A stretch of 64,000 nucleotides of DNA from Luidia sarsii. Taxonomy: Eukaryota > Echinodermata > Asteroidea > Paxillosida > Luidiidae. Below the pieces are notes generated by a model. It was given only the letters and a program-made list of their open reading frames with translations, was not told where the DNA came from and searched no databases. The DNA lies in the NCBI GenBank assembly GCA_949987565.1, contig OX465103.1:19663280-19727279 (forward strand), given 5' to 3'. Of this stretch, positions 40,069 through 60,786 are shown one piece after another. The position numbers and the translations under genes were made by a program. The stretch's first letter is position 1. Each line of letters opens with the position of its first letter.

Positions 40069-40872
40069 TTGTGCTCTGTGGTTGATCATAGTTTTCCATG
40101 TTTCTACCACTCAAAGCCTTGCAAATTTTACATCAGAGAAAGAGCTTCTACTGCTGACCATTTTGACTTCAGGCTGGATGGACTTCCTGTCTTTTGCAGT
40201 GTGTTTGGGATGGTTTTTGATGCTCATTTCCAGCATTTCCAGGCAGCATCATTTGCAGTTTGCAGAAAGCTCTCCACACTTGAACAAGTCCATTGTTCCC
40301 TTTGTCCTTCGTGGTTGATGAGTCATGATGCCAAGCCTGTTGGACTGTTTGAGGTCTTAATGGCTGTGTCCAACCACCCCAACCTCTGTATTTCAGGCAG
40401 TAAATGGAGATTTTGTAGGAGCAGGACTCTCTATTATCCCAACACTACAGCATGCTTCAATATCTTACTGTCTGGTGACATTGAACTCAACCCAGGACCA
40501 GAATCTTCAGAGTCATCACACAGTCACAGGAAACCATCAAGTGATACCTGTCTGCAAGTTTATCTCCAGAATGTGAGAAGTCTGAAAAACAAACTGGACA
40601 TTCTTCACAGCTCATTGGTAGCCTATCTTCAGCCTCTAGGAATGTTCAACTTCTTTGCCCTGACTGAAACCTGGCTTACTGTCAATGTATTGGACTCTGA
40701 GGTGAGCATTCCCAACTACACCATCTTCCGGAAAGACAGGCTGAACAGACGTAGTGGTGGTGTCCTCTTTGGCTGCCATAACTCCTTTGAGTGTCGGAGA
40801 AGATCTGACTTGGAGCCAGATGATCTTGAACTTTTGCTGGTAGAGGTACGTCTCTCAAGTAAGAATAAGCGG
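40069..40872 (+). pseudogene. LINE N-terminal region, 2A-like peptide and endonuclease start
   Basis: The frame reads a Cys/His-rich N-terminal part, then ACFNILLSGDIELNPGPES at about residues 130-148. It contains the exact 2A motif D-x-E-x-N-P-G-P preceded by a hydrophobic LLSG, which makes ribosomes skip the Gly-Pro bond. Directly downstream starts the endonuclease: LQVYLQNVRSLKNKLDIL, FFALTETWLTVNVLDSE (catalytic Glu), RKDRLNRRSGGVLFGCHNSF and DDLELLLVEVRLSS. The frame then runs into the tandem array of the insertion. The start codon is uncertain; an overlapping frame from 40043 also has Met and could represent a frameshifted N-terminus. Confidence 0.8.
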
Positions 40873-40875
40873 GAG

Positions 40876-40995
40876 CAGGTCAACTCGTACGCACGCCAAC
40901 TCGTACGCTTGCCAACTCGTACGCAAATTGGTCAACTCGTACGCAGGCCAACTCATACGCGGCTTGGTCAACTCGTACGCGGGCCAACTCGTATG
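40876..40995 (+). repeat. CAACTCGTACGC tandem array 1
   Basis: Seven to eight copies of CAACTCGTACGC separated by 4-8 bp spacers (CGC, TTG, AAATTGGT, GGCTTGGT), unit spacing 16 or 20 bp. A related array is at 44217-44345. Confidence 0.85.
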
Positions 40996-41892
40996 CGGGC
41001 CAAATCGCCACCATGTTAGGGTGATTTGTTCACGCAAGATTTTTAAGCAAGATTTTCTTCTGTTCGAGCCCATTGCTCAACAGATTTACGTTCTTTAGGC
41101 CTACTTAAAGATAATGAAAGAGGGATCGAATCAGAGAAAAGTTGCCGATCACAGGGCCGAAAGGCTTGACGAATTGCCAACCAATTGAAGTCGAATCATT
41201 TTATCTTCACCGATGCATTTTAAGTTAAAGAGGAAGAGAGTTAGAGAGAGAGAGGAAGGGAGATATCGAGAGAGAGGGAGAGAAAGAGAATAAGTGTAGC
41301 AATAACATGTTGTCATGTCATCTGGACAATCGTCAGTTGCAGTAGTGTTTGTCTCAGTTTTTGGTTTACCGATATTTTTGATTGACTTGCTCCTCTAGCA
41401 AGGAGAGCTGTGTGTCTAGGATTTCCTCAGCGAAACCAGAAATGTCTGGGACGGGGTTTGTTTAGGCAAGGGGAGTTTTGCAATTGCATTAGATTTGCGT
41501 TCTTTAGGCCTACCGGTATAAAATGAAAGAGGGGCCGGATCGGAGAAAAGCTGCCGATCACAGGGCCGAAAGGTTTGACGAATTGCCGACCAATTGAATT
41601 CAAGCTCATCAAAGGAAAGTTGCATTATAAACGGATTATCCACTAATCCTTTTATCTTCACCGGCACATTTAAAGTTCGCCGCTGCGAGTGGCTTTTCAA
41701 TTTGAATCCTGCATGCACCACTGGGCAAACGTACAATATAAACCCTGGGCAGTTAGCATACTCCGTCAATTTCATCGACAACCTCCACTGCTGCTAGCTG
41801 CTTTCCAAGACCTTCCCTCAGTTTCATTGCCAACCTTCACTGCAAGTCGCTGTCCAAGATCTTCCAAGATTCCAAGAACTCCGTCACTCAAG

Positions 41893-43684
41893 ATGAAGTA
41901 TCCGTGTGTGGTTTGCTCCAAGCAAGTTCGGAAGAACCAGAAAGCACTCCTCTGTGATTGCTGTGATAGATGGCAGCATCTGTCCTGCGACACGGGATTT
42001 TCTCCTGATGACTATGAACGCTTTATGAATTACTCCTCAGAGCTGCTATCGTGGCACTGCACACTCTATTCTATTTCTGTTCTATTTCCATCTCCGACAT
42101 TCCTCTTCCAGCAGGGGAGAGCACCAGAGCCTCCCTGGAGCTATCTTCTGCTGAAGTTGAAGGTGATGTGATGGGAACAGAGTCCAGTGCTCTTTCTGGG
42201 TCAGAGTCATTTCATGTAAGCGGGAGTTTCGAAATCCCGCAGCCCCCAGAGGAGGGTAGCATACTCGACACCCCGATTCCTGCCATCCAGGATGTTGGTC
42301 AAGACCAAGATGTCAGGTACTGAATTGTTCAAGCGGGGACGCAGCGGGGCAAGCCCATCCTTGTGGACAACAGGGGTTATTCGTATACCAAGAGGTGGCA
42401 ACGAAACCCCGATTCATCCCGCTCTAAATTGGGTGTGCAGCATACGGGGCAAGGCACAACGTTGCCCTGTCTCTGTCATCCAGAATGCAGAGACCTTCAC
42501 CCCCGGATCTCGCACCATCAACTCACACCCAGCTAACCCCGGTTCGGCTACAGCCATCCAGGTTGCTGCGGAGGTCAAGGCCGTATGTAAAAGGGACATC
42601 TTTCGTTCTGCGGGTGGAGGAGGTGATGGCAGAAATGTTGGATCCTGCCGCCTCAGCCCCAACTTTTCCAAAGCCGTCGAACCTCGTCCGCACAGGAAAA
42701 AACGTGCTCGTCAGTCACAGCGCCCTACCGAGCCATCGGACTTGTCTTTTGAACTTGCCACCAGCTTCCTGCCAGACAACTTTCTGGTCAAGGACATCGT
42801 GGTTGGGGAGGCCCGCCACCTTGTCTTTATGACCACCGACCAGTGTGCCGTGCCGGACAGGGCCAGAACATGGTATGTGGACGGGACCTTCAAGGTGGTC
42901 CACAAACCCTTTGTTCAGATGTTCAGCATCCATGCGTTTGTGAAATCTTAACAAGAGGACCAGAAGCAGGTGCCACTGGCATTCGCCTTGATGTCCCGCA
43001 AGACCAAGCGGGACTACAAGAAGGTTTTGAGGGCAATCAGGAAACAGCTGTCCTCTTCCGGCATGAATGCCCGTCGATTTGTGCTGGACTTTGAGGCCGG
43101 GGTCTGGGATTGCAAGGCTGCCTATTCCACTGGAGTCAGGCAGTTTGGCGAAAGTGCCAGGCACTTGGACTCCAAGTCCCCTACACCACCAACGCCGGGG
43201 TGCAGTCAGTAGTTCACAAGCTGATGTCCCTGCCCTTCCTGCCTCACGAACAGATCTCTGCGTCTTTCGTGAAGAGCACGAGACCAGAGTTGAGGACCCC
43301 GTGTTGCTGCGCCTATTCGAGTACATGTATGTGCGACACACATGGGTCGACAGCAATACATGGCCGCCCTAAACCTGGTCTGTCTTCAATACGAGCATCC
43401 GGACAAACAACGACGTGGAAGGGTGGCATCGGCGACTGAACGCCAAAGCCTCGAGACTTGGTCTGCCGATGTACCAGCTGATCCCTCTCCTTTACCGTGA
43501 GGCTCAGCTGGTAAACTTACAGATGAGGCTGGTGAAGGAGGGGAAGATGTGCAGGAACCAGCGGCGGGCCACCCGCCAAATCCAAGGCAGGGTGGTTATG
43601 CTGTGGGACCGGTACTTGGCGGGTAGCCTGAAGACATCAGGACTTCTTGCCGCCTGCAGTTATCTGCATGGGCCACAGCTGTGA
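41893..43684 (+). pseudogene. MULE transposase with PHD finger and FLYWCH domain
   Basis: The ATG at 41893 opens a PHD finger: YPCVVCSKQVRKN, LLCDCCDRWQHLSC and LLSWHC (Cys4-His-Cys3 pattern). A frameshift near 42070 leads into an acidic linker. A FLYWCH-like domain follows in two frames (KPILVDNRGYSYTKRWQRN, then NWVCSIRGKAQRCPVSVI). The transposase core has RTWYVDGTFKVVHKPFVQMF (first Asp) and an in-frame TAA at 42949. It continues KQVPLAFALMSRKTKRDYKK and RRFVLDFEAGVWD (second acidic block), then after a shift GCLFHWSQAVWRKCQ (C-x-H motif) and, after another, DVEGWHRRLNAKA. This order matches MULE transposases. Four frameshifts and a stop make it inactive. MULE enzymes cut and paste DNA; PHD and FLYWCH parts likely guide chromatin or DNA binding. 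Confidence 0.83.
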
Positions 43685-43704
43685 AGCATCTTCATCAAAC
43701 AACC

Positions 43705-43720
43705 GGCCCTTTTCAGGGCC
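43705..43720 (+). terminator. Histone-type mRNA 3' stem-loop
   Basis: GGCCCTTTTCAGGGCC is a perfect 6-bp stem with a 4-nt TTTC loop and fits the replication-dependent histone consensus GGYYYUHHUHARRRCC at every position. It is preceded by AAACAACC and followed by ACACA (the usual cleavage site spacing). A purine-rich CAAAAAAGAG 11 nt later resembles the histone downstream element bound by U7 snRNA. It lies 21 nt after the stop of the MULE-type transposase frame. No histone coding sequence is near. Confidence 0.7.
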
Positions 43721-43735
43721 ACACATTTTCAAAAA

Positions 43736-44216
43736 AGAGCAATTTGACAAATACTGGCGTCAACATATTTCCCTCAGATCATAACTCTGTCCAGTTAAGC
43801 ATGGACGTCAGTGCCGTCAAAAAACCTGCCTTTATGCATCGTCCTGTTTTTAACTTCTGAAAGGCTGATATGAATGACTTGATGAGAACACTAGAGTGCA
43901 TTCCATGGTGTCTTTTGGAGGCAGCAGATGACTGTAATGATGCTACATCATCATTTTATGATCTTGTCGACGCTGCATTTACTGATGTGGTTCCTGTAGT
44001 TCGCCCTCGCCATCCCTCTCCTCAATGGTATGACGGTGAAGTCCACCATGCTCTAAAGGCCAAGGAGCAAGCTTTTCGGAGGAAGAAGCATAATCCGTCT
44101 CCACATAATGCTGCTATCTTTCGATCAGCCAGGTGGGATTTCAAGCAACTGGTGAGAGCCAAATATTCCAGTTATCTGTCCACAGTAGCCAGTGACATTG
44201 GAGCTTCGTAAACGAA
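43736..44216 (+). pseudogene. LINE endonuclease C-terminus and linker
   Basis: NLTNTGVNIFPSDHNSVQL carries the endonuclease SDH motif (catalytic Asp and His), followed by MHRPVFNF and a stop. Then MNDLMRTLECIPWCLLEAAD, VVPVVRPRHPSPQWYDGEV and FKQLVRAKYSSYLSTV give the linker typical of CR1-type LINEs before the RT. A stop at 43860 and the second insertion at 44217 interrupt it. Confidence 0.75.
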
Positions 44217-44590
44217 ACAGGTCAACTCGTACGCCAGCCAACTCGTACGCGAGACAACTCGTGGCTTGGACAACTCGTACACCAGCCGACTCGTACGCGA
44301 GACATCTCGTACGTCGACCTACTCGTACACCAACTAACCCGTACACGCATTCTTCATCATATAGTCCGCAATTTCAGTATCAGGCGGAGAAAAAACAGGA
44401 AGTAACTTGTCAAACTTTTTGCCAAACGATACAACAATAAATGCAACATTGATTTCCCGTGTCTTGTTCATACTTAAATTAAAGAGCAACTTCAACGGTT
44501 TTGTAAAAAAAGGAGAGATTTATGGATGGAAATTGGTCAACAACAAACCGCCACCAGCAACGACACATCGCGTGACTTTGATCACCCTTT
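44217..44590 (+). mobile_element. Second insertion in the CR1-like LINE, with CAACTCGTACGC array
   Basis: Opens with CAGGTCAACTCGTACGCCAG and a degenerate array of the same unit to 44345, then about 240 bp without coding. LINE coding resumes near 44590 with LSSFVLKSCSNIL. The opening matches the start of the first insertion, so both probably derive from one element family. The LINE segment between the linker and the RT (fingers, GPDG motif) is missing. Confidence 0.6.
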
Positions 44591-60645: not shown

Positions 60646-60786
60646 AACTTGGACCCGACAAGTCACCCTTTTTTTATCGAATTTTGAAATTTTGAGTTTC
60701 GGGTGACTGTCACCCTGTCACCCGAAACTCAAAATTTCAAAATTCGATAAAAAAAGGGTGACTTGTCGGGTCCAAGTTACTTGGAC
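60646..60786. mobile_element. Foldback MITE copy 2
   Basis: Palindrome with arms of about 65 nt: AGTAACTTGGACCCGACAAG, TCACCCTTTTTTTATCGAAT, TTTGAAATTTTGAGTTTCGG and its reverse complement. Same arm ends as copy 1 at 54535, with an additional inner TTTGAGTTTCGGGTGAC stem. Confidence 0.88.

What the first reader, a model, noticed from the sequence alone, without database searches (positions are those of the whole stretch)
41893..43735. Histone-type 3' stem-loop directly after a MULE transposase gene
GGCCCTTTTCAGGGCC at 43705-43720 matches every position of the replication-dependent histone stem-loop consensus. It has an AAC-rich 5' flank, ACACA after the stem and a purine-rich CAAAAAAGAG at the distance of the histone downstream element. 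It begins 21 nt after the transposase stop codon. A transposase mRNA that ends with this signal would be non-polyadenylated and restricted to S phase, a way to couple transposition to DNA replication. I do not know of a MULE described with such a 3' end.
Basis: partly seen in the sequence, partly recalled or inferred. Interest (0 to 1): 0.8.

Follow-up and report, generated by a model that had tools for sequence, protein, structure and literature searches.

The report
Transposons carrying histone-type mRNA endings
In this animal genome a family of jumping genes, and some unrelated mobile elements too, carry right after their genes the RNA hairpin that normally ends histone messages, which suggests that they borrow the cell's DNA-replication-linked way of finishing an mRNA.

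Summary
The hairpin is real: Rfam RF00032 matches 43700-43745 at 41.2 bits (cut-off 34, E 9e-9), the only RF00032 match in 64 kb. The window's transposase is a dead copy with stops and frameshifts and a deleted right end, but the hairpin is no accident of this copy. It lies inside a MULE (PHD finger, minisatellite-rich inverted ends, 8-bp target duplications) and recurs after the stop codon in four subfamilies of the same 471-Mb genome, one with intact ORFs. Shared 4-fold sites agree only 16-35% between subfamilies, yet the 16-nt stem-loop is identical in at least one copy of each, with an AAGAG core starting 12-15 nt behind it. A fifth subfamily lacks it. The host's histone genes use the same 3' element with a compensatory stem change, and SLBP is encoded. 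Of 64 RF00032 matches read genome-wide, 7 lie at histone genes; the rest are in mobile elements or repeats, including an intact Tc1/mariner transposase. I conclude: a selected, histone-type 3' end of transposase mRNA. Loss of poly(A) and S-phase restriction are inferred, not shown.

The parts
40871..41010 (+). left terminal repeat of the MULE: GGGAGCAGGTCAACTCGTACGC followed by CAACTCGTACGC minisatellite units
   Evidence: same end in other copies; inverted version at the right end of L014-L017
41893..42063 (+). remnant of the transposase N-terminus with PHD finger
   Evidence: PF00628 23.4 bits (cut-off 24)
42096..43681 (+). remnant of the MULE transposase spread over three frames (blocks 42096-42422, 42430-43170, 43164-43274, 43226-43681), with an in-frame TAA at 42949-42951 among other stops
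   Evidence: Pfam MULE 16.8 bits at 42952-43209, below cut-off
43682..43684 (+). transposase stop codon TGA, at the position of the family C-terminus
43705..43720 (+). histone-type stem-loop GGCCCTTTTCAGGGCC, six base pairs and a four-base loop
   Evidence: RF00032 at 43700-43745, 41.2 bits
43721..43725 (+). ACACA, expected cleavage region
   Evidence: cleavage inferred from histone biology
43730..43739 (+). CAAAAAAGAG, candidate histone downstream element (U7 site) with AAGAG at 43735-43739
   Evidence: AAGAG at the host H3/H4 distance; core kept in subfamilies A-D
43750..43751 (.). junction: truncated MULE against the LINE; right terminal repeat and 297 bp of LINE missing
   Evidence: L014-L018
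40400..40870 (+). LINE into which the MULE inserted, 5' side of the insertion (only 40400-40870 was compared)
   Evidence: L018 97.9%
43751..44202 (+). same LINE, 3' side of the insertion
   Evidence: L018 94.5%
44213..44481 (+). fragment of a subfamily C element (left terminal repeat with minisatellite)
   Evidence: L025 at 76-89%

Best explanation
The window holds a decayed copy of a MULE-superfamily DNA transposon whose transposase transcription unit ends, as a built-in and selected feature, in a replication-dependent-histone 3' processing signal. SHOWN: the stem-loop and downstream element lie between the transposase stop and the right terminal repeat, and are kept in four subfamilies whose synonymous sites are saturated, including one with intact ORFs; the host's histone genes use the same element, and SLBP is encoded in the genome. 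INFERRED: the transposase pre-mRNA is bound by SLBP and U7 snRNP and cut a few nt after the hairpin, giving an mRNA without poly(A) that is made, translated and degraded on the histone schedule. Transposase would then peak in S phase, when excision can be repaired from, or gain a copy by, the sister chromatid. The same signal follows an intact Tc1/mariner transposase and the small ORF of a polymerase-B-associated element family, so histone-type 3' ends look like a recurrent adaptation of selfish DNA in this genome.
For: RF00032 41.2 bits in the window. Other copies: A 9 of 12, B 1 of 2, C 1 of 3, D 11 of 12 fully paired. Identity of the 16 nt although shared 4-fold sites agree in only 8/49 to 20/57. 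AAGAG core at +12 to +15 in A-D. Hairpin inside the element, with 8-bp target duplications. Intact D ORF of 601 aa, MULE 46.2 bits. Host H3/H4 with the same 3' element and a compensatory stem exchange. SLBP RNA-binding domain pieces at 52.4 and 38.2 bits. Intact Tc1/mariner ORF (DDE_3 61 bits) followed by RF00032 at 42.7 bits.
Against: No RNA evidence at all. Subfamily E has no hairpin in 7 of 7 copies, so it is dispensable. Two of three C copies have a broken first pair. The downstream core AAGAG is missing in L024, L025 and L070. AATAAA or ATTAAA lies 30-184 nt downstream in the MULE copies looked at, so polyadenylation stays possible. U7 snRNA could not be searched. No other species could be tested at the DNA level.
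Confidence: 0.78

Rival explanations
1. A histone 3' UTR fragment was captured once, as MULEs capture host sequence, and has been carried along passively without function.
For: MULEs tend to acquire host gene fragments (abstract of PMC6446971). The window's hairpin region resembles the host histone 3' ends over about 45 nt.
Against: Synonymous sites are saturated between subfamilies but the hairpin is identical, and only its downstream core is also kept. It is always on the transposase strand just behind the stop in the copies that have it.
Confidence: 0.07
2. The hairpin spreads by repeated recapture or gene conversion from histone genes or between mobile elements, so that its identity reflects recent exchange more than old selection.
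For: The same 16-mer occurs in the polB-associated family and in MULEs; a source is at hand.
Against: Histone stems read here are GGCTC/GAGCC (for H3/H4; for H2A, H2B, H1-like, H3), while MULE A-D stems are GGCCC/GGGCC, with GGCTC/GGGCC in two relics. Flanks and downstream spacing differ between subfamilies, which recent exchange would have made alike. Even then, repeated uptake at the same place would itself point to function.
Confidence: 0.1
3. The hairpin works through SLBP or another hairpin reader for translation, stability or export of the transposase mRNA, or as a terminator, and not to restrict expression to S phase.
For: SLBP also controls translation and stability of histone mRNA (passages of PMC1924863 and PMC5706932); nothing measured here tells these apart.
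Against: Retention of the downstream AAGAG core as well as the hairpin points to U7-dependent cleavage.
Confidence: 0.2

Closest known systems
Metazoan replication-dependent histone mRNA 3' end (Rfam RF00032; SLBP/U7 pathway)
   Same: Six-pair stem, UUUC loop, ACACA behind the stem, AAGAG-containing downstream element at the host histone distance, just behind a stop codon
   Different: The gene is a transposase; stem GGCCC/GGGCC where the host histone stems read are GGCTC/GAGCC; processing not demonstrated
MULE / Rehavkus DNA transposons (PMC6446971, passages)
   Same: MULE transposase domain, PHD finger, minisatellite before the 3' terminal repeat
   Different: Minisatellite at both ends; 8-bp duplications in the clear cases where the paper's table gives 9 bp for Rehavkus; histone-type 3' end, not mentioned in the passages seen
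Tc1/mariner transposon (L113)
   Same: A different transposase superfamily with the same hairpin behind its stop codon
   Different: Unrelated transposase; stem GGCTC/GAGCC
Polymerase-B-associated element family (L026-L028, L030, L032-L045)
   Same: A small ORF ends in the same hairpin, many copies
   Different: Assignment rests on one DNA_pol_B_2 match near one copy (L027); only described

Membership tests
Histone-type mRNA 3' end (RF00032) | Stem-loop scores above the curated cut-off | tested here: met
   window 41.2 bits, cut-off 34; subfamily D 31.2-33.0 bits for ten exact copies, just below the cut-off, because of its flanks
Histone-type mRNA 3' end (RF00032) | Purine-rich downstream element at the histone distance | tested here: met
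   AAGAG at +15 in the window and in host H4/H3 (+15, +16)
Histone-type mRNA 3' end (RF00032) | SLBP present in the genome | tested here: met
   PF15247 in two pieces, 52.4 and 38.2 bits, cut-off 27; 0 of 14 control genomes rang
Histone-type mRNA 3' end (RF00032) | U7 snRNA complementary to the downstream element | not tested
   genome search unanswered
Histone-type mRNA 3' end (RF00032) | mRNA cut after the hairpin, no poly(A) | not testable with these tools
   no RNA data
MULE superfamily | MULE transposase domain | tested here: met
   PF10551 46.2 bits (cut-off 27.6) in intact D; only 16.8 bits in a piece of the window copy
MULE superfamily | terminal inverted repeats and 8-11 bp target duplication | tested here: met
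   GGGAGCAGG.../...CCTGTATCC; 8 bp exact in L019 and L015, displaced in L017; not checkable in the window copy, whose right end is gone
Rehavkus | PHD finger in the transposase | tested here: inconclusive
   PF00628 23.4 bits in the window, 17.7 in D, both below the cut-off of 24
Rehavkus | minisatellite before the 3' terminal repeat, 9-bp duplication | tested here: inconclusive
   minisatellite at both ends; duplications are 8 bp
Rehavkus | transposase groups with Rehavkus in a tree | not tested
   no Rehavkus reference sequence at hand; hence 'Rehavkus-like' only

The most novel reading that the evidence does not exclude
Several unrelated classes of selfish DNA in one animal genome (MULE, Tc1/mariner, a polymerase-B-associated element, and further unassigned repeats) have independently taken up the replication-dependent histone 3' end, so that their mRNAs are made without poly(A) and mainly when DNA is replicating. 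Cell-cycle coupling of transposition would thus be encoded in the mRNA 3' end.
Probability: 0.55. Interest if true: 0.93.

Novelty: new variant of a known kind. Interest (0 to 1): 0.86.

Why it matters
The stem-loop 3' end is regarded as the hallmark of replication-dependent histone mRNAs (general knowledge). Mobile elements that carry it, under selection and in more than one superfamily, would be a new way for selfish DNA to couple its expression to S phase and to avoid polyadenylation. They would also be natural substrates for testing what SLBP/U7 processing needs outside histone genes. It also warns that RF00032 matches in animal genomes cannot simply be read as histone genes: here 57 of the 64 matches whose surroundings I read are not. 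The eight literature searches named in Tried and rejected listed no paper recognisable by title or start of abstract as reporting this; absence from listings of one open-access library is not proof.

Tried and rejected
Captured histone gene fragment: tblastn of four histone queries against L026-L045 found H4 in L029 and H3 plus H4 in L031 only; in the MULE copies the hairpin stands behind the transposase stop. The LINE as owner of the hairpin: rejected, since MULE copies in other flanks share the hairpin and LINE homology starts only at 43751. Copies in public collections: viral contigs with P0001 and with alignment A1 gave no relative; the 18-mer pattern gave 0 viral contigs; genome contigs with A1 gave none; the 18-mer pattern in genome contigs gave 5 records with bacterial titles, not followed. 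Naming the species from proteins: the best relatives are 47-54% identical, from unnamed contigs. The small ORF L028:1470-2111 has no homologue at E<=1e-3. A hammerhead ribozyme suspected by eye in the L093 repeat group: no Rfam hammerhead match at E<=0.01 in 20 loci scanned, so not claimed. A pogo/Tigger reading of the L089 group (by eye): no convincing long ORF in L112 or L114, dropped.

Literature searches (open-access full text, listings only): 0 papers; 2; 0; 9 listed of 10; 25 of 196; 10 of 107; 12 of 15; 15 of 72. None of the papers listed was recognisable, from title or start of abstract, as describing a transposon with a histone-type 3' end; the papers not listed were not seen. Searches looked for MULE/Rehavkus papers. 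Of papers I saw: PMC6446971 passages found by terms; PMC13359780 passages; PMC5706932 passages; PMC1924863 passages; all others only in search listings.

Not done for want of an answer: U7 snRNA genome search, DNA searches with L025 and L022, pattern search.

Full report
OBSERVATION. The 16-mer GGCCCTTTTCAGGGCC lies at 43705-43720 (+), 21 nt after a TGA at 43682-43684. Rfam's histone 3' stem-loop model matches 43700-43745 over its full length with 41.2 bits (curated cut-off 34, E 9.3e-9), the only RF00032 match on either strand of 64 kb.

THE COPY IN THE WINDOW IS DEAD. Translating 41893-43684 gives stops in every frame. The homology is spread over three frames, with an in-frame TAA at 42949-42951 among other stops. 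Pieces match PHD (23.4 bits, cut-off 24) and MULE (16.8 bits, cut-off 27.6); no FLYWCH match was found. A read-through query found 230 relatives at E<=1e-3, 120 of them listed, the named ones from animals. In the 60 relatives printed, most full-length C-termini end near where this one does (such as ...GPSL), so the stop before the hairpin is the true end of the gene.

WHAT THE ELEMENT IS. The window belongs to a 471-Mb assembly of 227 contigs, an animal by its histones. A search with 43600-43780 gave 40 matches: the window itself, eleven further copies at 84-99% that reach query position 150-154, two weaker ones, and 26 short ones over the hairpin part. Copies fetched (L014-L025) show the anatomy. 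The left end is GGGAGCAGGTCAACTCGTACGC with a CAACTCGTACGC minisatellite. The transposase and the hairpin follow, and 279-905 bp behind the hairpin (L014-L017) an inverted minisatellite ends in GCGTACGAGTTGACCTGTATCC. Eight-bp target duplications are exact in L019 (CGTTTAGC) and L015 (ATCTCACA); in L017 GCCTCTAG lies 9 bp outside the left terminus. The hairpin is therefore inside the element. The window copy entered a LINE at 40870/40871. Its right end is gone together with 297 bp of the LINE, which the LINE copy in L018 still has. PHD finger and minisatellite recall Rehavkus (PMC6446971, passages), but the table there gives 9-bp duplications and I could not test the tree, so I call it Rehavkus-like.

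CONSERVATION. A genome search with P0001 gave 88 matches, a lower bound. I read 3' ends from it and. Subfamily A (window): of 12 ends, 9 keep a fully paired stem (8 exact, L019 with a G-U pair), L024 has one mismatch, L023 is split by an insertion, and the A relic in L022 has decayed to GGCCCTCTTCAGGTCC. B: 1 of 2 exact (L022; L062 has one mismatch). C: 1 of 3 exact (L038, found by its 3' end); L025 and L058 have the first base changed. D: of 12 examined, 10 exact, one G-U (L070), one mismatch (L064); four further tandem D copies on C12 were not read. E: 0 of 7 (L053, L055, L056, L059, L061, L065, L069); L060, whose match stops short of the end, has none either. D contains an intact 601-aa ORF (L066; MULE 46.2 bits, PHD 17.7 bits, below its cut-off).

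Between A, B, C and D the proteins are 51-61% identical, and shared 4-fold degenerate sites agree in only 8/49 to 20/57 cases (16-35%), which is saturation. Yet at least one copy of each subfamily has the same 16 nt. The AAGAG core starts at +15 in A (+14 in L021), +12 in B, +15 in C and +13 in D; it is missing in L024, L025 and L070. The sequence around it differs between subfamilies. In a 33-row tree A, B and C form one branch and D groups with E and P0001/P0015, all in one supported clade (96/93). Presence in the ancestor with loss in E is the simplest reading; an independent gain in D is not excluded. Neutral survival of a captured fragment does not fit; selection on the hairpin and its downstream element does.

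HOST MACHINERY. The host's H3 and H4 genes in L029 and L031 end in GGCTCTTTTCAGAGCC, with CACATTTTCAAAAAAGAGAAA behind it. The downstream part is nearly identical to the window's, while the stem differs by a compensatory C-G/T-A exchange. SLBP's RNA-binding domain is encoded at C14:8963586-8964426 (52.4 and 38.2 bits in two pieces, the second with stops in the frame read, as an exon with flanking intron would give). U7 could not be searched.

BEYOND THE MULE. A whole-genome RF00032 search lists 76 matches, 75 over the cut-off; only 75 of 134,613 candidates were scored, so this is a lower bound, and one of 14 control genomes rang below the cut-off. I have read the surroundings of 64 of the 76; the 12 not fetched have scores equal to those of repeat families seen. 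Seven of the 64 lie at histone genes: three in L029 and L031; L078 (a second hairpin behind an H2A gene), L088 (H2B), L099 (H3), and L079 (H1-like by eye). The other 57 are: 4 MULE copies; 28 matches in a family of small ORFs that end like ...FLFLRKMGCGKFI or ...TKMGLGLFV; 3 at Tc1/mariner sequences; and 22 in two groups of unassigned repeats. One locus of the small-ORF family (L027, not itself in that list) carries a DNA_pol_B_2 ORF (61.9 bits). The Tc1/mariner case is clear: L113 has a 355-codon open frame with DDE_3 at 61 bits, and RF00032 at 42.7 bits begins 43 nt after its last sense codon. So two unrelated transposase superfamilies with intact ORFs (MULE D and Tc1/mariner) have the signal in the same place.

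MECHANISM. Established biology (passages of PMC5706932 and PMC1924863): SLBP binds the hairpin, U7 snRNP pairs with the downstream element, CPSF73 is the likely nuclease cutting after the hairpin, the mRNA has no poly(A), and its half-life drops at the end of S phase. Applied here by inference: transposase mRNA ends at the hairpin and follows the histone schedule. AATAAA or ATTAAA motifs 30-184 nt downstream leave room for a polyadenylated form, but the host H3/H4 genes have AATAAA 55-62 nt downstream too. Shown: sequence, position, conservation, host SLBP. Not shown: transcription, cleavage, cell-cycle behaviour.

VERDICT. Observation confirmed; interpretation supported in its main point, with the correction that the copy seen is a fossil. 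It is a new variant of a known kind of element (MULE with a histone-type 3' end), with signs of a wider and more surprising pattern across mobile elements of this genome.

Noticed in passing
L113:160-1312 (G000:C4), also L074, L081, L082: Tc1/mariner transposase with a histone-type hairpin behind its stop.
   Followed up: partly
L026-L028, L030, L032-L045, L072-L109 in part: Repeat family with a small ORF ending in the same hairpin, DNA_pol_B_2 ORF near one copy, some copies as 9-kb palindromes with C2H2 ORFs. In L026-L028 and L036 a second hairpin AGTCCTTTTCAGGACT follows about 110 bp on.
   Followed up: partly
L080, L093-L095, L097, L098, L100-L107 and L089-L092, L096, L110, L111, L114: Two groups of unassigned repeats with RF00032 matches.
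   Followed up: partly
L053, L055, L056, L059, L061, L065: Subfamily E without hairpin has a tRNA-like GGTTCGAGTCCC stretch behind its stop (by eye); subfamily B (L022) has Rfam tRNA matches nearby.
   Followed up: no
G000:C12:10766617-10799169: Tandem array of six subfamily D transposase copies about 6.3 kb apart.
   Followed up: no
window 60646-60778: Long inverted repeat that matches Rfam MIR7504 on both strands (84.8 bits each), probably a foldback element and not a microRNA gene.
   Followed up: no
window 41082-41192 and 41491-41601: 111-bp direct repeat (86%) in the 5' part of the MULE, also matched in other copies.
   Followed up: no
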